From an uncultured Caulobacterales bacterium (GTDB taxonomy: Bacteria > Pseudomonadota > Alphaproteobacteria > Caulobacterales > Caulobacteraceae): DNA of 64,000 nt. The notes under the pieces are model-generated. The model ran no database searches. It saw nothing but the letters and a program-made list of their open reading frames with translations, and was not told the origin of the DNA. The position numbers and the translations under genes are program-made. The stretch covers positions 124,001 through 188,000 of the forward strand of contig CAIMFV010000010.1 of the NCBI GenBank assembly GCA_903840435.1. The letters run 5' to 3'. Shown piece after piece: positions 3,813 through 13,699 of the stretch (the stretch's first letter is position 1; each line of letters begins with the position of its first letter).

Positions 3813-3888
3813 GGGGCTATAGCTCAGCTGGTAGAGCGCTTGAATGGCATTCAAGAGGTCAGCGGTTCGACTCCGCTTAGCTCCACCA
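3813..3888 (+). tRNA. tRNA-Ala (anticodon GGC)
   Basis: A 76-base cloverleaf can be folded by eye. The acceptor arm GGGGCTA pairs with TAGCTCC, allowing one G-U. The D arm is AGCTCAGCTGGTAGAGC. The anticodon stem CTTGA/TCAAG encloses loop ATGGCAT with anticodon GGC, and the T arm contains GGTTCGACTCC. The 3' CCA is encoded at 3886-3888. It marks the left edge of an accessory-looking stretch; I found no repeat of its 3' end within the window that would indicate an attachment site. Confidence 0.97.
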
Positions 3889-4046
3889 TTTCAATAGGTT
3901 AGAAAACCCCAGGTTCGGATGACGGGCCTGGGGTAAGTTTTTGGTCGCACGAACGGTTCGCAGCTGGCGCTGTCCATGCTTTCCGAGCCTCAGCGGGCGC
4001 CTGCTATGAGCTTGGCTTGAATGGGGCGTGCGGCGCGCTGATTTGG

Positions 4047-4367
4047 TTATCTTGCCTCTATGCGGAAGCGCGCCTGATAACTTGGCATGGTGGTTATCCC
4101 GCCCACCGGAAGCACCGGCCTTTGATCAAGGCGGCTGATAGAATAGGCTTTCAGCAGGCTGGCTAACAGGATTTGCGCCTCGGCCATGGCGAAGGCTGCG
4201 CCGATGCAGATGCGCGGTCCAAGGCCAAAGGGCATAAAGGGCCCGCCAGAGGTCCAGGGCGAGGCTTGGTTTTCAAAGCGCTCCGGCATAAAGGCATCGG
4301 GCGCCTGCCAATAGCCGCGATGCCGGTGAATGATCCATGGGCTGATCCACACCCGCGCGCCGGGCAT
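4047..4367 (-). pseudogene. Cytochrome P450 remnant (C-terminal fragment only)
   Basis: Only about 107 residues of a P450 remain. They include the PERF motif (residues 28-31) and the haem-binding loop FGLGPRICIGAAFA, with the axial cysteine at residue 54. A full P450 is near 400-450 residues. Upstream in the same frame only seven more codons are open before a stop at about 4389, and no I-helix or ExxR region is encoded nearby. It is therefore a truncated remnant rather than a working enzyme. The PERF/IGAAFAMAEAQ pattern differs from the intact CYP153-type gene at 8449, so it is not a duplicate of it. It sits close to tRNA-Ala. Confidence 0.8.
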
Positions 4368-4388
4368 GATCTGGCGGCATGACCCGCA

Positions 4389-4664
4389 TTATTTCGCGCA
4401 CGGCAGAACTTCGTATTCCCACTGCCATGATGAGTAGAGATATTCGCCGCCCCCTTCGCGATCCGTCAGCTTCGCCAGAATGCGGAAGCGGGTTCCGACC
4501 GGATAGTCCTTTCGTAGTTTCCGGCTACACTCGACATGGAGGGTGGTGGGGAACCGTTGTCCGGGGAGCGGTCTGACATGCACCTTTCCATGGAGTCCGC
4601 TGGTGCGACTCGGCAGGAAGCTTTCTACATCCACCCAATCATAGCCTTCGTCGTGTTTCGCCAT
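4389..4664 (-). CDS. Hypothetical protein, 91 aa
   Basis: This short protein starts at an ATG (4664) preceded by AAGGGCGG, a fair ribosome site. It is soluble, rich in charged and aromatic residues, with the stretch KDYPVGTRFRILAKLTDREG and a C-terminal YLYSSWQWEYEVL that look like beta strands of a small compact fold. No signal peptide or membrane segment is visible. I do not recognise a functional family. It ends where the P450 remnant's open frame begins, so both may belong to the same inserted or decayed block. Confidence 0.6.
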   Translation of the reverse strand: MAKHDEGYDWVDVESFLPSRTSGLHGKVHVRPLPGQRFPTTLHVECSRKLRKDYPVGTRFRILAKLTDREGGGEYLYSSWQWEYEVLPCAK

Positions 4665-5052
4665 TTCAGCCGCCCTTGCGCCTAAGGATCGATTCAGAGC
4701 TTGCGCGACCCTGTATCAAAAGTCCCCCAAAAATAGCCGCCCATAATCCCTTCTCCGCAAAGGATTCAGACCCTCGATTTTGGCTGTCTCAAATGCAGTT
4801 AGTTGAGTCACGCGGATCAACACCAATGGCACCAATAGTCGAGGCCCATCTTCGCCCTTGGTCACGCAGTTTGGGTGTTTTCCTTTAGAAGGCGCCGCGG
4901 CGCATCGCCACGGCCTTCGGCGTTCCAGCAGGTTTTGATCTTCCTATGGTCTTGACCCTTGGTTCACGCCCCAACCCGAACCAATAAATATCTATTTGAC
5001 ATATAACCATAAAGGTAATAAGTATTGCACACAGTAGATATGTGGATGCGCC
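4665..5052. other. 388-base intergenic region upstream of the Nudix operon
   Basis: No convincing gene: the only sizeable frame (4676-4888, plus strand) has no family likeness or ribosome site. The last 70 bases are markedly AT-rich and carry the promoter described separately. Confidence 0.5.
4988..5041 (+). promoter_or_regulatory. Predicted promoter with flanking inverted heptamers
   Basis: A perfect -35 hexamer TTGACA lies at 4996-5001, and a -10-like TAAGTA at 5019-5024 leaves a 17-base spacer. The heptamers ATATCTA (4988-4994) and TAGATAT (5035-5041) are inverted copies on either side of the promoter, 47 bases apart, possibly operator half-sites for the Nudix-type regulator encoded immediately downstream. 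The promoter match is good; the operator role is speculative. Confidence 0.5.
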
Positions 5053-5784
5053 ATGACCGAAGCTGATTTCCTCGACGGCTATGATCCTAACGCCTTTCCG
5101 CGCCCCTCGGTGGCGGTGGACCTTGTGCTGATGACCGTGAAGGAGGGGCGTCTGGCGGCCTTGCTACAGCAGCGCCCAAATCATCCGCACAAGGGCGACT
5201 GGGCGCTTCCTGGCGGGTTTGTTGGGATCGAGGAAAGCTTGGATGACGCGGCCAAGCGCCTGATGACAACTAAGGCGGGCTTGGATGAAGGCTGGATCGA
5301 GCAACTCTATAGCTTTGGCGAACCCAACCGCGATCCACGCATGCGGGTGATCTCCGTTGCCTATTTCGCCCTTCTACCGGCTGCCAAGTTCAATGCCACC
5401 TTGGCGCAAAGGCCAGATCTCGTGCTCGCGCCCTTGGAGGTCCCCTGGGCGGGTGAGGTCGGTGGCCAGGTTCTGGCCTTGGCGGAAACAGCTAGACCTC
5501 GGATTCTGGCTTTTGACCATGCTGAGATTTTAGGCCTCGCCGTCAAGCGCCTGCGCGGCAAGCTCGACTATTCGAAGATCGGCTTTGCGCTTCTCCCCGA
5601 GCGTTTCACCTTGGGTGAGTTGCAAGGTGTGCACGAAGCCATCTTAGGCACCGAATTCAACAAGCCCGCTTTTCGCCGTCGCATGTTGGACAGGGGCTGG
5701 ATCGCGGGAACGGGCGAGCGGCAAAGCGGCGCGGCGTTCCGTCCGGCTGAACTTTATCACCTGATTTCTAAGGAAAGGACCTGA
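5053..5784 (+). CDS. Nudix-domain transcriptional regulator, NrtR-like
   Basis: This 243-residue protein has an N-terminal Nudix fold (about residues 20-150) and a C-terminal winged-helix-like region (about 165-240, with FTLGELQGVHEAILG and FNKPAFRRRMLDRGWI). The Nudix box at 54-77 reads GGFVGIEESLDDAAKRLMTTKAGL-like but carries MTTK where a hydrolase has the metal-binding E-x-x-E-E core, so catalysis is probably lost. This matches the NrtR family, in which a degenerate ADP-ribose-binding Nudix domain controls DNA binding by the wing domain to regulate NAD genes. It heads an operon: the next gene starts two bases after its stop, and an NAD-kinase-like gene is third, which fits an NAD-linked regulon. 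Which ligand it senses is inference. Confidence 0.82.
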   Translation: MTEADFLDGYDPNAFPRPSVAVDLVLMTVKEGRLAALLQQRPNHPHKGDWALPGGFVGIEESLDDAAKRLMTTKAGLDEGWIEQLYSFGEPNRDPRMRVISVAYFALLPAAKFNATLAQRPDLVLAPLEVPWAGEVGGQVLALAETARPRILAFDHAEILGLAVKRLRGKLDYSKIGFALLPERFTLGELQGVHEAILGTEFNKPAFRRRMLDRGWIAGTGERQSGAAFRPAELYHLISKERT

Positions 5785-5786
5785 CC

Positions 5787-6773
5787 ATGGCGACCATTTC
5801 AAAATTTGGCCCCGTCGCGAGATTGCGCAGCGATGCGAGCCATCATGTAATCCGCTATCGCGGCGGCAAGATTCAACAGAGCGGCAGGGGTTTGGTCTTC
5901 TGGTTCCGTCCGGATGTGGCCAGCATTGTCGAATTGCCGATCGACGATCGAGAAACGACGCTGTTCATCAAAGGACGCAGCGCCGACTTCCAGTCCGTCA
6001 CGGTTCAAGGCGTGCTGACCTGGCGTGTGGCCAATCCCGAGCGCTTGGCCGACCGCATCGACTTTACCGTTGCCCTGAGCAATGGCCAATTGACCGGCCA
6101 GCCGATTGAGAAAATCGAAGCGCGGCTCTCTGGGCTCGCCAGTCAGGCGGCCTTGGACTATTTGGCGGGTGCCGACGTCCGCGCCTTGTTGGATGCGGGC
6201 GTTGAGCCTTTGCGTAAAGTGTTGGAATCGGCACTTTCCTCCAGCCCAATGCTGGAGGATCTCGGTATCGCCATCGGGGCTGTCGGCCTGCAAAACCTGG
6301 CACCCAGCAGTGAGCTGGAACGCGCGCTGCAAACGCCAACTTTCGAATCTCTGCAACAAAAGGCCGATCAAGCCACCTTCGAACGACGCGCCCTGGCGGT
6401 CGATAAGGAGCGCGCAATTGCTGAAAACGAGCTCGCCAATCGAGTCGAACTGGCGAGGCGGGAAAAGCAGCTTATCGCCGAGGACGCTGCGAACGCGCGA
6501 GATCGGGCCCAGGGGCTTGCAGAAGCCAGTCAAGTGCAAGCCGACGCCGAGGCCAACCGCATCCGGACGGTCGAAGGCGCCCGGGCTGAAGCCGAGTTGG
6601 CGCACATGGCAGTTTACAAGGACCTGCCGCCGCGAGTGCTCTTAGGCCTTGCCGCCCGGGAGTTCGCCAGCAACCTGAAATCCATCGAACACCTGAACGT
6701 GACGCCAGAGCTGGTCGCAAGCCTGGTCCGCGAGTTTGGCGCACGCGGCGGCCCCCTGTTGGATCGGAGGTGA
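5787..6773 (+). CDS. SPFH / Band 7 domain protein (stomatin-prohibitin-like)
   Basis: The 328-residue protein has an N-terminal SPFH-like beta domain (about 10-110: GRGLVFWFRPDVASIVELPIDDRE and SVTVQGVLTWRVANPERLADRI). A long charged helical region follows (about 190-280, rich in Ala/Glu/Arg: QKADQATFERRALAVDKERAIAENELANRVEL) that should form a coiled coil. There is no N-terminal membrane anchor, unlike classical stomatins. SPFH proteins assemble into rings or scaffolds at membranes. It lies between a Nudix-type regulator (2-base gap) and an NAD-kinase-like gene (6-base gap), so all three are almost certainly co-expressed. Its role with NAD enzymes is not established. Confidence 0.82.
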   Translation: MATISKFGPVARLRSDASHHVIRYRGGKIQQSGRGLVFWFRPDVASIVELPIDDRETTLFIKGRSADFQSVTVQGVLTWRVANPERLADRIDFTVALSNGQLTGQPIEKIEARLSGLASQAALDYLAGADVRALLDAGVEPLRKVLESALSSSPMLEDLGIAIGAVGLQNLAPSSELERALQTPTFESLQQKADQATFERRALAVDKERAIAENELANRVELARREKQLIAEDAANARDRAQGLAEASQVQADAEANRIRTVEGARAEAELAHMAVYKDLPPRVLLGLAAREFASNLKSIEHLNVTPELVASLVREFGARGGPLLDRR

Positions 6774-6779
6774 CCGACC

Positions 6780-7673
6780 ATGACAAGCGCCGCCCCCCGT
6801 GTGGTCTTTGTGGTTCGGGAAACCGATTATGAATTGCTGCTGGCGCGTCACGCCACGCGTCAGCAGACCCGGTTTTTTCTGCAAACGCGCGGGCAAGACC
6901 TGGATGCGCTAGAAGCCGCGCATGATCAGTTTCAGCAGGTGCTGCAAACCGCTCGCTCCACCGTGCCGACCGAATGGCGCCAAGCTTTGGTCAAACGTCA
7001 GGGCCTCGACCGGTTTTTGTTTGCCAAAGACGATGTCGTGGTCGCCATTGGTCAAGATGGCCTGATCGCCAATGTGGCCAAATACCTCGACGGCCAACCC
7101 GTGATCGGCATCAACTCCGCGCCGGAGCAGTTTGACGGTGTCTTGATGCAGGTTCCGCTTGCGTCTTTGGCCATCTCCTTCAAGGCCGCCATCTCCACAG
7201 ACCCAGACCTTGAGGTTCGCACCATGGCTGAAGCGCGGCTCGACAGCGGCGAACGGCTCTTCGCGTTGAATGAGGTCTTTATTGGTCACCGCAGCCACCA
7301 ATCCGCGCGTTATACGCTTGAAGCCGGCGACCGGACGGAAAGGCAAAGCTCCAGCGGCGTCATTGTCGCCACCGGCACCGGCGCCACAGGTTGGGCACGC
7401 TCCATCATGGAGGCGACAAACACGAAACTCCCCCTGTCCCCAACCGAACCGGCGCTGGGTTTCTTCGTCCGCGAGCCGTTTCCCAGTGTCGCAACCGGAA
7501 CTTCGCTCCGTTCAGGCAAGGTCGGCGCCGCAGCCTTAAGGATCCGATCCCAGATGAATGAGGGCGGCGTCATCTTCGCGGACGGCATCGAGCAGGACTA
7601 TTTGTCGTTTGATTGGGGCCGCGAACTGACCGTGGGGATTGCGGATCGAAGGCTTAGACTGGTCCGGGTCTGA
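6780..7673 (+). CDS. NAD kinase-like protein
   Basis: NAD kinases phosphorylate NAD(H) to NADP(H). The 297-residue protein carries the fold's landmarks: VVVAIGQDGLIAN (GQDG at 91-94, instead of the usual GGDG but with the aspartate kept), PVIGINSAPEQFDG, ALNEVFIG (Asn164-Glu165), and the glycine-rich ATGTGATGW around 197-204, equivalent to the family's TPTGSTAY. It lacks the GFL after the GIN motif. It is the last gene of the Nudix-SPFH-NADK operon. It could be a dedicated, regulated NAD kinase or a relative with altered substrate; GGDG to GQDG makes activity uncertain. The housekeeping NAD kinase is not in this window. Confidence 0.78.
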   Translation: MTSAAPRVVFVVRETDYELLLARHATRQQTRFFLQTRGQDLDALEAAHDQFQQVLQTARSTVPTEWRQALVKRQGLDRFLFAKDDVVVAIGQDGLIANVAKYLDGQPVIGINSAPEQFDGVLMQVPLASLAISFKAAISTDPDLEVRTMAEARLDSGERLFALNEVFIGHRSHQSARYTLEAGDRTERQSSSGVIVATGTGATGWARSIMEATNTKLPLSPTEPALGFFVREPFPSVATGTSLRSGKVGAAALRIRSQMNEGGVIFADGIEQDYLSFDWGRELTVGIADRRLRLVRV

Positions 7674-7862
7674 GATGGACGAAAAGCGTTCGCGAGCCTA
7701 ACATCTGGTGCCCGCCTGAACCTGCAGGCTTGGCCATTGCCCCCAAACGAGATTTGGCCCTTGAAATACTTCCTGTCGTCAGGGTGTTCTCCGGCTCCAG
7801 GCTTTCGCCGGAAAGGGTTCTCGAAGAATGCGCTGGCGGGCGGGTTTTGGGTAGGTCAAACC

Positions 7863-8270
7863 ATGCGAAACAGATGCGTTGTTCTCTGCGCCCTATTTAG
7901 TTTGATGCCTTCATCCGGGCTGCTCGCCGCAAGTCCAGCTGCGGCTCCCACGAATTGGGTGCAGGTAAAATCTACGGCCGCGCGCACAATTTACGTCGAT
8001 ACGAATTCGATAAAAGTCCGGGGTCATCTAAGGGATGTGTGGGAGAAGACCGTCGTGGCCGTAACCGATCCTAAGCAAGTCTCTGTGGAAATTGCGCGCT
8101 GGCGATATGATTGTACCCAAAGGCGGGCTGCCCTGCTTTACTCAGAGAGCCGCCTTAAAACTGGGGCCCTGGTCGATAGTGCAGACATCCCTGAAGCACA
8201 ACGCATTTGGGATGATGTTAGGCCCACGAGTGTATCGGCCGTGGTGATGACTATTGCCTGCGCCCGGTGA
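7863..8270 (+). CDS. Secreted surface-adhesin E-like protein
   Basis: Start chosen at the ATG at 7863, which gives a 135-residue protein with a normal signal peptide (MRNRCVVLCALFSLMPSSG then an Ala-rich cleavage region). Upstream codons in the same frame lack features of a gene. The mature part, NWVQVKSTAARTIYVDTNSI followed by the VWEKTVV and ARWRYDCTQRRAALL strands, fits the small Adhesin_E-type domain of unknown function found in periplasmic or surface proteins. Two cysteines near residues 81 and 133 could form a disulfide. It stands alone between the NADK-like gene and CYP153. Confidence 0.72.
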   Translation: MRNRCVVLCALFSLMPSSGLLAASPAAAPTNWVQVKSTAARTIYVDTNSIKVRGHLRDVWEKTVVAVTDPKQVSVEIARWRYDCTQRRAALLYSESRLKTGALVDSADIPEAQRIWDDVRPTSVSAVVMTIACAR

Positions 8271-8358
8271 TCTGAGGGCTGGCTGTCGCACACGCGGTTG
8301 CGAACCCAGCGGACCCTGCGCCCCGACAATCAAGACCAAGTGCCAAAGTTAAGGTCTA

Positions 8359-8436
8359 GCCAAACCTTGCCTCTGGCCAAACCTCACCTTTCGGGTTTAG
8401 TCTTTTGCAGAAAATAAAAGTACCCAGAAAATAAAA
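8359..8436 (+). promoter_or_regulatory. Two pairs of direct repeats, both with 17-base period, upstream of CYP153
   Basis: GCCAAACCT occurs at 8359-8367 and again at 8376-8384; CAGAAAATAAAA occurs at 8408-8419 and again at 8425-8436. Both pairs have exactly 17-base spacing. They lie directly before a GGGAGG ribosome site (8438-8443) and the ATG at 8449. This could be an activator-binding array for alkane-responsive expression, but no regulator gene is adjacent. Confidence 0.4.
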
Positions 8437-8448
8437 TGGGAGGCGAAG

Positions 8449-9705
8449 ATGGACGGCTTTGCGGCGGCTGACGGCCAAGAGCGCGGTAATCCTTGGGCGG
8501 AGCCTTTGGAGACCCTTGATCCCAGTCTTGCCGACCGGTTCGCAACCGGGGCCCATTACGCCTATTTCGAGCGCTTGCGGCGCGAGGACCCGGTCCACTA
8601 TACGCCCAAAAGCATGTTCGGACCCTTTTGGTCGATCACGCGCTTCGATGACATTGTTGCGGTCGAGACCAATCCGGCCGTCTTTTCCTCCAACCGCGAC
8701 ATCGTCATTGGCGACAATCCGGAAGGCTTTGCGCCACCGATGTTTATCGCCATGGACCCGCCAAAACACGATGTGCAGCGCAAGACCGCCACGCCAGCCG
8801 TGGCTCCGGCGCGGCTACAGGACTTGGAGCTGTTGATCCGCCAACGCGCCGCCACCATTCTCGACGCCCTGCCCATCGGCGAGACCTTTAATTGGGTCGA
8901 GCGGGTCTCGATTGAGTTGACCACCCAGATGTTGGCCACCTTGTTTGACTTTCCGTGGGAAGATCGCGCCCTGTTGCCCTACTGGTCGGATGTGACCACC
9001 ACGTCGGAAACCGTCGGGATTGCCGCCGATATGGCGGCCCGCGAGCGCATCCTTGGCGAGTGTCTCGCCTATTTCACCCGGCTGTGGCGCGAGCGGGCCG
9101 CACAGCCGCCAAGGTTTGATTTCATCTCCTTGTTGGCCCACGGCGAAGAGACCCGCGACATGGTCGACAGGCCAATGGAGTTCTTAGGCAATTTGATGCT
9201 GTTGATCGTTGGCGGCAATGACACGACCCGAAACTCGATCAGCGGTGGTGTGCTGGCGCTCAATCAATTTCCGCAAGAATATGCCAAGCTGAAGCGAAAT
9301 CCGGGCCTCATCTCCAGCATGGTGCCAGAGATCATTCGCTGGCAAACGCCGCTCGCCCATATGCGCCGCACCTGCACGCAAGATATCGCGTTTGGCGGCA
9401 AGCTGATCCGCAAGGGCGACCGGGTGGTGATGTGGTATGTGTCGGGCAATCGCGATGACAGCGTGATTGAAACGCCGGACCAATTCATCATCGATCGGGC
9501 GAGGCCGCGCCACCACCTCTCGTTTGGCTTTGGCATCCATCGCTGTATGGGCAATCGGGTGGCGGAACTGCAGCTGCGCATACTGTGGGAGGAGATCCTT
9601 GCGCGCTTCGACAATGTGGAGGTGATGGGGGAACCCGTCCGCGTCGCATCAAATTTTGTTCAGGGCTATACCGATCTTCCTGTGCGCCTGACGGCCAGGG
9701 CTTAG
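8449..9705 (+). CDS. Cytochrome P450, CYP153 family (terminal alkane hydroxylase type)
   Basis: CYP153 enzymes are soluble P450s that hydroxylate the terminal carbon of medium-chain alkanes or fatty acids. This 418-residue protein shows CYP153-typical blocks: SMFGPFWSITRFDDIVAVETN, FIAMDPPKHDVQRKT (99-113), the I-helix GGNDTTRNS (255-263), EIIRWQTPLAHMRRT, and the haem loop LSFGFGIHRCMGNR with axial Cys366. A GGGAGG site lies six bases before the ATG. The ferredoxin and ferredoxin reductase usually clustered with CYP153 are absent from this window, so electron supply must come from elsewhere. Direct repeats lie immediately upstream. Substrate range cannot be read from sequence. Confidence 0.92.
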   Translation: MDGFAAADGQERGNPWAEPLETLDPSLADRFATGAHYAYFERLRREDPVHYTPKSMFGPFWSITRFDDIVAVETNPAVFSSNRDIVIGDNPEGFAPPMFIAMDPPKHDVQRKTATPAVAPARLQDLELLIRQRAATILDALPIGETFNWVERVSIELTTQMLATLFDFPWEDRALLPYWSDVTTTSETVGIAADMAARERILGECLAYFTRLWRERAAQPPRFDFISLLAHGEETRDMVDRPMEFLGNLMLLIVGGNDTTRNSISGGVLALNQFPQEYAKLKRNPGLISSMVPEIIRWQTPLAHMRRTCTQDIAFGGKLIRKGDRVVMWYVSGNRDDSVIETPDQFIIDRARPRHHLSFGFGIHRCMGNRVAELQLRILWEEILARFDNVEVMGEPVRVASNFVQGYTDLPVRLTARA

Positions 9706-9844
9706 AGTCGGGGCGCGCCCTTGATAAAGTCTGCCAAAAAATTACAGGTTTAGCGGGTAAGTATGTTTGTCCAACTCGCCCATTCATAATCTATTTAAAC
9801 ATGAAATGGCAGTATTGGACCGGTTTAGAGGTTAGGAATCCCCT

Positions 9845-10192
9845 GTGATCCCGAAAACGCCCGGCGCAAAAGCCGAGTCCCGCAAGGTCGGCCGCAGCCG
9901 TGTGCTTATTGGTGGGAAAATTCTGCTGGAAAATCTCGGCATGTCGATGGACTGCCGGATGCGGGATCTGACCGATGAGGGCGCGCGGATTGTTTTGGCC
10001 CCGGGCATCCTGACACCAGATCGCTTTGAACTCATCAATCTGCGCGATGGCGTGTTTTATTCCTGCACGGTCATTTGGCGCGATCCGCCGCAGGTCGGGG
10101 TCAAATTTGATACCCGCCACGAACTCACCGGCGCAACCGACCCTCGCCTGGTGCGGATGCGGGCCCTGTGGATGAATATTGTCAATCGCTAA
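9845..10192 (+). CDS. PilZ domain protein
   Basis: This small 115-residue protein starts at GTG 9845. It has the PilZ-like pattern of an N-terminal arginine-rich stretch (ESRKVGRSRVLIGGKI) followed by MRDLTDEGARIVL, resembling the D-x-S-x-x-G core that binds c-di-GMP, and VGVKFD near the C-terminus. The serine of the consensus is threonine here, so nucleotide binding is uncertain. It is monocistronic between CYP153 and a VOC gene. A role as a c-di-GMP effector is family-based inference. Confidence 0.7.
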   Translation: MIPKTPGAKAESRKVGRSRVLIGGKILLENLGMSMDCRMRDLTDEGARIVLAPGILTPDRFELINLRDGVFYSCTVIWRDPPQVGVKFDTRHELTGATDPRLVRMRALWMNIVNR

Positions 10193-10271
10193 GCGACGGT
10201 GTTCCAGGACTTGCCCATCTTTGTGTTCATGATATGTTCAGGTCGCGGCAGGGTCCGCTACGGGAGGGGTC

Positions 10272-10640
10272 ATGATCGGTTATGTGACATTGGGAACCAA
10301 TGATTTGGCGCGCGGGGCAGCGTTTTATGATTCAATTGCGGAGGAACTGGGGGCACCGCGGATGATGGAGGGCGACGGCTTCATCGCGTGGGGTGAGCCA
10401 GGTGGCGCGCCGGGCATTGGCTTGACCAAACCGTTCGATGGCGCACCGGCAACGGTGGGAAATGGCGTCATGGTGGCGCTTTCGGCCAATTCCAAAGCCC
10501 AGGTCGACAAATTACACGCTATCGCACTTGCCCATGGTGGGACCTGCGAAGGGCCTCCGGGGCCGCGCGGCGACACCTTTTACGCCGCCTATTTCCGCGA
10601 TCCAGACGGCAACAAGCTGAACGCCTTTTTGATGACCTGA
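10272..10640 (+). CDS. VOC / glyoxalase-like protein
   Basis: A single-domain 122-residue vicinal-oxygen-chelate protein. It begins MIGYVTLGTNDLARGAAFYD (the usual first strand and helix) and ends GDTFYAAYFRDPDGNKLNAF, the conserved C-terminal YFRDPDGN signature. The ATG has GGGAGGGG a few bases upstream. Such proteins act as lyases, isomerases or resistance proteins; the substrate cannot be predicted. Confidence 0.88.
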   Translation: MIGYVTLGTNDLARGAAFYDSIAEELGAPRMMEGDGFIAWGEPGGAPGIGLTKPFDGAPATVGNGVMVALSANSKAQVDKLHAIALAHGGTCEGPPGPRGDTFYAAYFRDPDGNKLNAFLMT

Positions 10641-10738
10641 TTGGCGAGGTGGGGCCAGTGGTGAGCACCATTGGCCCGCTTCGGTGCTATTTTCAAGGCT
10701 TGGCGAATTTCGCATCGATCTAGCTTAAGCTCAGGCTT

Positions 10739-12160
10739 ATGACACCGGCGATGCGGATGAACCGAGACAATAGGGCAAAGATGGCAGGCGGAAGTCTCGC
10801 CTACCGGGTCGCGCGACCGGTGGTTTTGTTGGCGGGCCTTTTGGTTTTTGCCGTGAGGGTTGGCGCCGTCTGGGCAGACGAGGCACCGTCCGCAGTCGAG
10901 GCGGCCGACCGTGGAGGGGCGGGCGAAACCGTTGCGCTGCACGTGCAAGCCACCTTGATTGATCAGCTGGGGCTTGCTTTTCATTCTCCCTATCGAGGGC
11001 AAAATAGCCTTGATCCCGCAACGCGTGGCCGCGAGACCGCCGACCTGACGGTTTATGGAGGGGTGCGGCCTTGGGCAGGGGGAGAGATTTGGATCAATGC
11101 CGAAGTCGACCAAGGGTTTGGTCTGAGCAACACGCTTGGGCTGGCAGGGTTTCCGAGCGGCGAGGCCTATAAGGTTGGGCACAGCTATCCCTATGCCATG
11201 ATCCAGCGTTGGTTTCTGCGTCAAACCCTTGACCTAGGCGGGCAGCGCCAGACGCTGGAGCAGGACCAGAACCAACTCGCCGGGGGTCAAGCGGCCAACC
11301 GGCTGGTTCTTACAGTGGGCAAGATTTCGGTCGTCGATATTTTCGACACGAACAGCTTCGCCCATGATCCCCGGGGAGATTTTTTCAACTGGACAATTAT
11401 CGACGCGGGCACATTCGACTATGCGGCCAATTCTTGGGGCTATAGCTATGGCGGCGCCTTGGAGGCCTATTGGGGTGCTTGGACGGGGCGGGCGGGCGTT
11501 TATGCTATGTCGCGACAGCCGAACGGCGAGTCGCTCGATGCGAGTTTTCGAAAATTTCAATCGCTTCTGGAACTCGAGCGACGTTTCAGCGTCGCGGGTC
11601 AACCAGGTTCGGTAAAGCTAACCGGATTTCTCACCCGAGCGCCCATGAGCGTTTTTGCTGAGGCGCTGCGTCAGGGACAGTTACGCAACAGCACCCCGAA
11701 CCTGCTTGGCGCACTTCGATATCAGAGCCATTCCGGAGTCAGTTTAAACCTGCAACAAACCCTCACCCAAAGCCTCGGTGTTTTTGCGAGGATTGGCCTC
11801 GACGACGGCCATCAACAGTCCTACGAATTCGCTGACGTCGACCGAACCGCCAGTGTCGGCGCCACCTTGGCGGGTGACATCTGGGGTCGACCCCATGACA
11901 AGTTTGGGATTGCGAGTGTCGTCAACGGAATTTCCAAACCCTTCCAAACCTATCTTCAAGCTGGCGGCCTCGGCATTTTGATCGGCGATGGACGATTACC
12001 ACATCCCGGGGTGGAGGCGATTTCCGAGACCTATTACAGCCTTGGGCTCACCAAGGCGGTCATGGTCAGTTTCGATTATCAATTCGTCGAAAATCCCGCT
12101 TACAACCGCGACCGTGGGCCCGTTTCCATTCTTGGCCTCCGACTTCATCTGGGACTCTAG
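10739..12160 (+). CDS. Carbohydrate-selective porin, OprB-like
   Basis: The 473-residue outer-membrane protein has an N-terminal signal (hydrophobic VVLLAGLLVFAVRVGAVWA ending before DEAPS). Several ATGs are possible (10739, 10757, 10781); 10781 would give a more usual signal length. The body has OprB-type blocks: VVDIFDTNSFAHDPRGDFFN followed by WTIIDAGTFDYAANSWGYSY, alternating aromatic beta strands, and a C-terminal strand GLRLHLGL suited to barrel assembly. It should form a sugar-permeable pore. An outer-membrane protein gene follows after two bases, so they are probably co-expressed. Confidence 0.82.
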   Translation: MTPAMRMNRDNRAKMAGGSLAYRVARPVVLLAGLLVFAVRVGAVWADEAPSAVEAADRGGAGETVALHVQATLIDQLGLAFHSPYRGQNSLDPATRGRETADLTVYGGVRPWAGGEIWINAEVDQGFGLSNTLGLAGFPSGEAYKVGHSYPYAMIQRWFLRQTLDLGGQRQTLEQDQNQLAGGQAANRLVLTVGKISVVDIFDTNSFAHDPRGDFFNWTIIDAGTFDYAANSWGYSYGGALEAYWGAWTGRAGVYAMSRQPNGESLDASFRKFQSLLELERRFSVAGQPGSVKLTGFLTRAPMSVFAEALRQGQLRNSTPNLLGALRYQSHSGVSLNLQQTLTQSLGVFARIGLDDGHQQSYEFADVDRTASVGATLAGDIWGRPHDKFGIASVVNGISKPFQTYLQAGGLGILIGDGRLPHPGVEAISETYYSLGLTKAVMVSFDYQFVENPAYNRDRGPVSILGLRLHLGL

Positions 12161-12162
12161 TT

Positions 12163-12930
12163 TTGACGCGCACCTGTCTGATGCTTGCGGTTTTGGTTCC
12201 TTTCGTCAGCGCCCGCCCGGCTTCGGCAGCGCCGGAGGAGGTGCAGGTCTATACCAATGACATCAATGCGCCGGGACAGTTGGGGCTGGAATTGCATCTT
12301 AACCAGGTTTCGGCTGGCGATCCGGCGCCCGACCATATTGGAGGTGAATCCAGCCTCGGGCGCTACCGCCTGACCCCTGAATGGTCCTATTCCCTCAATG
12401 ACCAGATTGAGTTGGGTGCCTATCTGCCGCTGACCACCCTGGACCGACAAGGCGCCCTTCGCGCCGATGGCTATAAGGTCAGGATCAAGTGGCTGCCCGC
12501 GCATCCGGAAACAGGCTTTTACTACGGCCTGAATTACGAGGTTGGATGGGAGGATCGTCATCTCGACCAAAATCCTTGGAACAACGAAGTTAAGGTCATT
12601 GGCGGCTGGCAGAATGCTCGCTGGTTGATCGGCGGCAATGTCAATTTTGACTGGGCCCTGCGCGGCCCAGCGATAACGGCGCCTGAGGTCGAGCTTGACG
12701 CAAAGCTGGCGTTTAAACTCAGTCCGATGACGCAAATCGGCCTTGAGACCTATAATGGCGCAGGAAGCACGAAGGATTTTGGTCGCGTCAGCCGCAGCGT
12801 GCAGGCGACCTATCTCGCCCTCGACACCAAGCTCGGCCGGTGGGACCTAAATTTCGGTCTGGGCAAGGGATATGGAACCAACCCAGATCATCTGATCGTT
12901 AAAATGATCCTTGGCGTCCCGATTGGGTAG
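12163..12930 (+). CDS. Outer-membrane beta-barrel protein of unknown function
   Basis: The 255-residue protein starts at TTG 12163, two bases after the porin stop, giving a signal peptide MTRTCLMLAVLVPFVSARPA cleaved near Ala-Ala-Pro. An ATG at 12181 is an alternative but would leave a short n-region without a positive charge. The mature chain is a run of amphipathic beta strands with abundant Tyr/Trp and turns (GLELHLNQVS, YSLNDQIELGAYLPL, YYGLNYEVGWED), ending with MILGVPIG. It resembles uncharacterised transporter-like barrels. Close linkage to the OprB-like gene suggests a joint envelope role. Confidence 0.7.
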   Translation: MTRTCLMLAVLVPFVSARPASAAPEEVQVYTNDINAPGQLGLELHLNQVSAGDPAPDHIGGESSLGRYRLTPEWSYSLNDQIELGAYLPLTTLDRQGALRADGYKVRIKWLPAHPETGFYYGLNYEVGWEDRHLDQNPWNNEVKVIGGWQNARWLIGGNVNFDWALRGPAITAPEVELDAKLAFKLSPMTQIGLETYNGAGSTKDFGRVSRSVQATYLALDTKLGRWDLNFGLGKGYGTNPDHLIVKMILGVPIG

Positions 12931-12961
12931 GTCTCAAAGCGAAAGCCAAGTTGGAGCCTGC

Positions 12962-13699
12962 ATGACGGAAATGACCAGCCCCGCTCCTCTTGCCCGCACG
13001 GCCGTCATTGTCGGCGCATCCGGCGGCATAGGGGCCGCTCTGGTTCAGGCCGTGAGCGAGCGTGGCGAGGTCGAGCGCGTCTTTGCGCTCAGTCGTCGGC
13101 GGCCACTTGACCTTCCTCCCAAGGCCAGTTGGCTTTCGATTGACTTGGAGCGGGAAGCGACCATCGACGCCGCCGCTGCGGCCATAGGCGAGGCCGATCT
13201 TGTCATCGTCGCCACAGGCCTGTTGCAAGATCAGCGACAAGCCGTCGAGCGTAGCTATCGCGCCCTCACCACCGAGGCCATGGCGAGATCCTATCTGATC
13301 AACACAATTGGTCCAGCACTGGTGGCAAAGGCCTTCCTGCCGCGTTTGCCAAAAGATCGCCGCAGCGTGTTCGCCGTCCTCTCGGCCCGGGTAGGGTCGA
13401 TTTCCGACAATGGGCTTGGCGGCTGGCATAGTTACCGCGCCTCAAAGGCGGCGCTGAATATGATGGTGCGCACCCTCAGTATTGAGGTGCGGCGCGAACG
13501 CCCCTTGGCGCTGTGCGTGGCGCTTCATCCCGGAACCGTTGCAACGCCCCTTTCAGCGCCGTTTCAAAAGGGCGTTCCGACAGAAAAGCTCTTCCCACCT
13601 GAGCTTGCGGCCGAGCAGCTGTTGCGGGTTGTGGAAGGCCTGTCGCCGAGAGACTCAGGACGGTTTTTTGCTTGGGACGGCTCTGAGATCGCGCCCTAA
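12962..13699 (+). CDS. Short-chain dehydrogenase/reductase (SDR), C-factor-like
   Basis: An NAD(P)-dependent oxidoreductase of 245 residues, taking the ATG at 12962 (MTEMTSPAPLARTAVIVGAS). Features are the Rossmann motif GASGGIG, the catalytic serine region VLSARVGSI and YRASKAA (Tyr-x-x-x-Lys). The LHPGTVATPLSAPF ending is seen in C-factor-type SDRs. The frame is open farther upstream, overlapping the preceding gene, but it has no SDR similarity there. Substrate unknown. Confidence 0.9.
   Translation: MTEMTSPAPLARTAVIVGASGGIGAALVQAVSERGEVERVFALSRRRPLDLPPKASWLSIDLEREATIDAAAAAIGEADLVIVATGLLQDQRQAVERSYRALTTEAMARSYLINTIGPALVAKAFLPRLPKDRRSVFAVLSARVGSISDNGLGGWHSYRASKAALNMMVRTLSIEVRRERPLALCVALHPGTVATPLSAPFQKGVPTEKLFPPELAAEQLLRVVEGLSPRDSGRFFAWDGSEIAP

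What the first reader, a model, noticed from the sequence alone, without database searches (positions are those of the whole stretch)
4988..7673. Candidate NAD-linked system: degenerate Nudix regulator, SPFH scaffold, NAD-kinase-like enzyme
The three genes have gaps of 2 and 6 bases behind one strong promoter. The first resembles NrtR, which senses ADP-ribose-type ligands; the third is NAD-kinase-like with GQDG replacing GGDG; the middle is a membrane-scaffold-type protein without a membrane anchor. The combination suggests local control of NAD/NADP at membranes or a stress or phage response using NAD signals. I know of no described function.
Basis: partly seen in the sequence, partly recalled or inferred. 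Interest (0 to 1): 0.66.

Follow-up and report, generated by a model that had tools for sequence, protein, structure and literature searches.

The report
Mobile NAD-control module: regulator, scaffold, kinase
Three adjacent genes form a compact, horizontally moving module, found in at least two and probably six bacterial phyla, that pairs an altered NAD-kinase-type enzyme with a ring- or cage-forming type of scaffold protein under regulators of NAD supply; all searched carriers already have an ordinary NAD kinase, and I found no description of the module.

Summary
The three ORFs are real, with gaps of 2 and 6 bases. They belong to a conserved unit. Independent searches with the kinase and with the SPFH protein hit exactly the same 12 of 398 genomes of the phylum. 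In 92 of 92 fetched homologous loci with enough upstream sequence, an SPFH gene precedes the kinase gene, and 73 of 92 also carry NrtR. The kinase is a divergent NAD-kinase fold, closest to human mitochondrial NADK2. It keeps the catalytic Asp and the N-E/D motif, with GQDG replacing GGDG in 67 of 68 members. All 12 searched host genomes have a separate NAD kinase. The NAD link is strong: same-operon neighbours include nadCA+nadB, NadM+NAMPT, PncA, PncB and NADAR/ADP-ribosylglycohydrolase, and two promoters carry exact NadQ operators. The SPFH protein lacks a membrane anchor but has the HflK/C-like long-helix architecture. The cassette is mobile: plasmids, a Tn7-like element, and here an extra segment 3' of tRNA-Ala absent from a sister genome. 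Phage defence is not generally supported, and 'strong promoter' was not confirmed. Most likely it is an inducible accessory pyridine-nucleotide kinase held by an SPFH oligomer under an ADP-ribose-responsive repressor. The substrate and the role of GQDG are untested.

The parts
3813..3888 (+). tRNA-Ala(GGC); synteny with the sister genome ends at its 3' end
3889..13153 (.). variable segment that carries the cassette (9.3 kb here, 2.0 kb in sister genome G147)
   Evidence: no attachment repeat found
4996..5001 (+). TTGACA, probable -35 element, 57 bp before the first ATG as in most alphaproteobacterial relatives
   Evidence: no good -10
5002..5020 (+). imperfect dyad TATAACC-ATAAA-GGTAATA, candidate NrtR operator
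   Evidence: sequence; the corresponding region is conserved in relatives; inference
5037..5045 (+). second candidate half-site GATATGTGG (relatives: GGATATATGG)
   Evidence: inference
5053..5784 (+). NrtR-family regulator with degenerate Nudix domain and winged helix
5787..6773 (+). soluble SPFH/Band-7 protein with a ~100-residue helix, no membrane segment
6780..7673 (+). NADK2-like kinase with GQDG motif

Best explanation
It is a self-contained, horizontally spread NAD(P)-homeostasis module. Gene 1 is an NrtR-type autorepressor that reads an NAD breakdown product (ADP-ribose or a relative) and controls the operon from dyads in its promoter. Gene 3 is an accessory kinase of the NADK2 type that phosphorylates NAD(H), or a close pyridine nucleotide, when the operon is released. 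Gene 2 is a soluble SPFH protein that oligomerises into a ring or cage and holds, clusters or gates the kinase. Shown: gene content, co-conservation, predicted fold, retained catalytic residues, NAD-regulon context, a separate housekeeping NADK. Inferred: ligand of the repressor, substrate, SPFH oligomer, physical SPFH-kinase contact.
For: Same 12 of 398 genomes found by kinase and by SPFH searches. 92/92 loci have SPFH upstream of the kinase and 73/92 carry NrtR, 55 on the same strand and 18 divergent. Kinase and SPFH distance matrices correlate at r=0.93 over 61 loci (permutation maximum 0.27). Operon partners: nadC-nadA fusion + nadB (L087), NadM/Nudix-like + NAMPT (L109), PncA + PncB (L021), PncB (L040, L041, L045, L056), DUF4291-NADAR-ARG (L022, L114), ARG between the two genes (L058), all on the same strand. 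Exact NadQ operators (consensus from PMC5343134) in 2 promoters, 0.0 expected. Actinobacterial dyad in 14 promoters, 0.01 expected. Kinase model pLDDT 95, best PDB match human NADK2, E 1e-20. D93, N164, E/D165, S191-G193, G199, G201 and W205 kept in 68 homologues. Separate NADK in own genome and 11/11 carriers. NrtR proteins elsewhere are released from DNA by ADP-ribose (PMC6800001).
Against: GQDG departs from the GGDG motif of NAD kinases, so activity or phosphoryl donor may have changed. No biochemical data. NAD or ADP-ribose genes sit near only 13 of about 100 loci; most other neighbours are unrelated. SPFH oligomerisation and SPFH-kinase contact are inferred from architecture and linkage only. 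Distance-matrix correlation also reflects shared descent.
Confidence: 0.55

Rival explanations
1. The kinase has left NAD: it phosphorylates another NAD-derived molecule (ADP-ribose, NMN or nicotinamide riboside), or uses another phosphoryl donor, so the module removes or signals with an NAD breakdown product.
For: GQDG is fixed in 67/68 members while the rest of the active site is kept; ADP-ribosylglycohydrolase, NADAR and DUF4291 partners; repressor family senses ADP-ribose (PMC6800001).
Against: Most other partners make NAD (nadA/B/C, NAMPT, PncA, PncB); closest solved fold is a true NAD kinase.
Confidence: 0.22
2. The module is an anti-phage or stress-defence system that acts on NAD pools during infection.
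For: Patchy distribution, plasmids, a Tn7-like element with DUF4007/cysteine-desulfurase cargo, extra segment next to a tRNA gene.
Against: No PADLOC match; flanking genes of 38 loci show no repeated defence family beyond generic helicase and ATPase hits; recurrent partners are biosynthetic; no toxic domain.
Confidence: 0.1
3. The kinase-like protein is a catalytically dead NAD(P) sensor that regulates the SPFH assembly.
For: Altered GGDG motif; constant pairing with a scaffold-type protein.
Against: Catalytic Asp, N-E/D motif and many pocket residues are invariant in 68 sequences, as expected for an enzyme.
Confidence: 0.1

Closest known systems
NrtR regulons of NAD metabolism (Rodionov 2008, cited via PMC6800001)
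   Same: Nudix-winged-helix repressor next to its target operon with dyads in the promoter; targets linked to NAD
   Different: Here the main targets are an SPFH protein and a GQDG kinase. No held paper pairs SPFH with NrtR or with NAD kinase; the founding NrtR paper was not held
Human mitochondrial NAD kinase NADK2 (PDB 7r4m, 7n29)
   Same: Closest solved fold; catalytic Asp and NE motif shared
   Different: 22-23% identity, GQDG instead of GGDG, 297 aa, fixed SPFH partner
HflK/C, stomatin, prohibitin, flotillin and vault SPFH assemblies
   Same: SPFH domain plus long helix
   Different: No membrane anchor in the window's protein; the linked partner is a kinase, not a protease or NfeD protein
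ARG-centred Nudix/WYL-regulated systems (PMC9503650)
   Same: Nudix-HTH regulator; ARG in some loci (L022, L058, L114; farther off in L108), NADAR in L022 and L114
   Different: The paper names no SPFH protein or NAD kinase; ARG is occasional here, SPFH-kinase is the core

Membership tests
NrtR transcription factors | Nudix-like N-domain fused to NrtR winged helix | tested here: met
   PF21906 1.5e-20 and PF00293 2.3e-10
NrtR transcription factors | NCBIfam NtrR equivalog cut-off (400 bits) | tested here: not met
   167.9 bits: same broad family, different subgroup
NrtR transcription factors | Release from DNA by ADP-ribose | not testable with these tools
   needs gel shift
NAD kinase (PF01513) | Pfam gathering score | tested here: not met
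   19.9 vs 25.5 bits
NAD kinase (PF01513) | NAD-kinase fold | tested here: met
   Foldseek to 7r4m, E 9.9e-21, TMq 0.72
NAD kinase (PF01513) | GGDG motif | tested here: not met
   GQDG in 67/68, GPDG in 1/68; catalytic D kept in 68/68
NAD kinase (PF01513) | N-E motif | tested here: met
   N164 in 68/68, E165 in 61 and D in 7
NAD kinase (PF01513) | Phosphorylates NAD(H) | not testable with these tools
   assay needed
SPFH/Band 7 | Band_7 domain followed by a long helix | tested here: met
   PF01145 4e-10; helix 175-277 in model
SPFH/Band 7 | Membrane anchor (typical, not universal) | tested here: not met
   max 19-residue hydropathy 1.14
SPFH/Band 7 | Ring or cage oligomer | not testable with these tools
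   inferred from architecture
Anti-phage defence system | Match to a known defence protein model | tested here: not met
   0 PADLOC hits
Anti-phage defence system | Residence in defence islands | tested here: inconclusive
   scattered generic hits in 112 neighbours; one Tn7-like locus

The most novel reading that the evidence does not exclude
The soluble SPFH protein forms a vault- or dome-like cage around a new kinase subclass whose GQDG loop gives it a new phosphoryl donor or a new NAD-derived substrate, so that bacteria make or store a distinct phosphorylated pyridine nucleotide inside a protein compartment switched on by ADP-ribose.
Probability: 0.15. Interest if true: 0.88.

Novelty: new variant of a known kind. 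Interest (0 to 1): 0.64.

Why it matters
NADP formation is normally assigned to one housekeeping kinase per bacterium. A second, inducible, mobile kinase tied to a scaffold protein, found in hundreds of genomes and annotated as 'hypothetical protein' or 'sugar kinase', would add a regulated branch to NAD(P) metabolism. It would also give a bacterial SPFH protein a defined enzyme client, which makes the open question of what soluble SPFH proteins do directly testable.

Tried and rejected
Chance adjacency: rejected. Sole NADK of the genome: rejected, a separate one lies on another contig. Phage gene cluster: no match in 50,697 phage records; two hits in viral contigs, of which L114 lies at a contig edge and has the same neighbours as bacterial L022. 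Integrated element with attachment repeats at tRNA-Ala: none found. Regulon search with a promoter pattern in the own genome gave nothing, but the pattern spacing was mis-set, so it does not count. The first single-sequence scan of genome contigs failed; the alignment scan worked. E. coli genomes: no near match with the Providencia copy. Literature: no paper pairing SPFH with NAD kinase or NrtR was found.

Full report
Observation. The window holds three + strand ORFs at 5053-5784, 5787-6773 and 6780-7673 with gaps of 2 and 6 bases. Pfam names an NrtR winged helix with a Nudix domain, a Band_7 domain, and a sub-threshold NAD_kinase match. The Nudix box reads RLMTTK where catalytic Nudix proteins have RExxEE. 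The claimed strong promoter is only half there: TTGACA at 4996-5001 but no acceptable -10.

Co-conservation. A homology search with the kinase over 398 genomes of the phylum found 12 carriers; an independent search with the SPFH protein found exactly the same 12, each time at the same locus. The cassette is absent from the other genomes of the same family in that sample, including a congener. Translated search of plasmids found 68 records, including Streptomyces, Rhizobium, Roseomonas and Providencia. Over 92 loci with at least 2.2 kb upstream of the kinase, an SPFH gene is found in 92 and NrtR is near in 73 (55 same strand, 18 divergent); the SPFH gene is the next gene upstream except in L058, where an ADP-ribosylglycohydrolase lies between. 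The core is therefore the SPFH-kinase pair; the regulator is exchangeable. The 80 loci are the closest ones, so these fractions describe the near family.

NAD context. Where recurrent extra genes share the operon they are NAD genes: a NadC-NadA fusion and NadB (L087), a Nudix protein taken as NadM/Nudix and NAMPT (L109), PncA and PncB (L021), PncB (L040, L041, L045, L056), DUF4291-NADAR-ADP-ribosylglycohydrolase (L022, L114), or an ADP-ribosylglycohydrolase between the two genes (L058). 13 of about 100 loci have such genes nearby, all on the same strand. Two Methylobacterium promoters (L049, L057) carry an exact copy of the NadQ operator consensus ATRCTCannntGAGYAT, published as an NAD-synthesis operator in PMC5343134, against 0.0 expected in shuffles; L057 has no NrtR beside it. 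Actinobacterial promoters share TATCGTC-N5-GACGA dyads in 14 cases against 0.01 expected, including loci without adjacent NrtR. Alphaproteobacterial promoters share TTGACATAT at about 57 bp before the ATG.

The kinase. The AlphaFold model has pLDDT 95 and matches human mitochondrial NADK2 best (7r4m, E 9.9e-21); the profile also hits NADK2 first (9.7e-22). D93, N164, E/D165, S191-G193, G199, G201, W205, R231, E232 and D268-G269-x-E271-x-D273 are fixed or nearly so in 68 homologues; GQDG holds in 67 of 68. One scan pattern contained GQDG, so that figure is partly conditioned, but the 12 relatives from plain homology all have it. The own genome and 11 of 11 carriers have a separate NAD kinase, so this is an accessory enzyme. 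From general knowledge, changes in the GGDG loop of the related phosphofructokinases switch ATP to pyrophosphate; that analogy suggests, but does not show, a donor change here.

The SPFH protein. The model has the SPFH fold plus a helix of about 100 residues (175-277), pLDDT 89.6, nearest to HflK/C and stomatin, with vault protein further down the list. There is no hydrophobic anchor. Oligomer and kinase contact are inference. Kinase and SPFH distances correlate at r=0.93, as expected for a pair inherited together.

Mobility. Synteny with congener G147 stops at the 3' end of tRNA-Ala (3888) and resumes at 13154; the congener has 2.0 kb there and this genome 9.3 kb. No attachment repeats were found. 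Elsewhere the cassette sits in a Tn7-like element next to TniQ and on plasmids.

Mechanism. Best reading: NrtR represses the operon until ADP-ribose or a related NAD product rises, as measured for other NrtR proteins (PMC6800001). The kinase then phosphorylates NAD(H) or a close relative while held by an SPFH oligomer. Rivals are a changed substrate or donor, a dead sensor, and phage defence. The last has little support: no PADLOC match and no repeated defence family among 112 flanking genes beyond generic helicase and ATPase hits.

Novelty. Each part belongs to a known superfamily, but I found no paper that pairs SPFH with an NAD-kinase-like enzyme or with NrtR. The founding NrtR paper was not held, so an earlier mention cannot be excluded.

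Noticed in passing
L139 5980-6924, L140 6001-6432, L141 6094-8924, L142 53-478: The unnamed ORF beside tetR(H)-tet(H) on resistance plasmids is this kinase or its 3' remnant; the permafrost Acinetobacter lwoffii plasmid pALWED1.1 still has the whole NrtR-SPFH-kinase cassette next to tet(H), which suggests that the two spread together.
   Followed up: partly
L113 637-7536: A 257 kb IMG/VR viral contig carries a Nudix/NrtR-like gene, an isochorismatase (PncA-like), ClpP, DUF3228, SPFH, the kinase and a weak NAPRTase match, possibly a phage NAD-salvage cluster.
   Followed up: partly
window 4047-4367: A 106-residue C-terminal cytochrome P450 fragment lies between tRNA-Ala and the cassette, probably a remnant of rearrangement in this variable segment.
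   Followed up: no
L117 7270-8286: The genome has a second NrtR-type protein, away from the cassette.
   Followed up: no
L019 2485-14999: Tn7-like element (TnsA, Mu-type transposase, TniB, TniQ) with the cassette, followed by a cysteine desulfurase and DUF4007, which look like defence cargo.
   Followed up: partly
L085, L091, L092, L103, L105-L108, L110, L111, L019, L065: NrtR proteins of these mostly actinobacterial loci keep an intact catalytic Nudix box (RExxEE), unlike the alphaproteobacterial ones.
   Followed up: no
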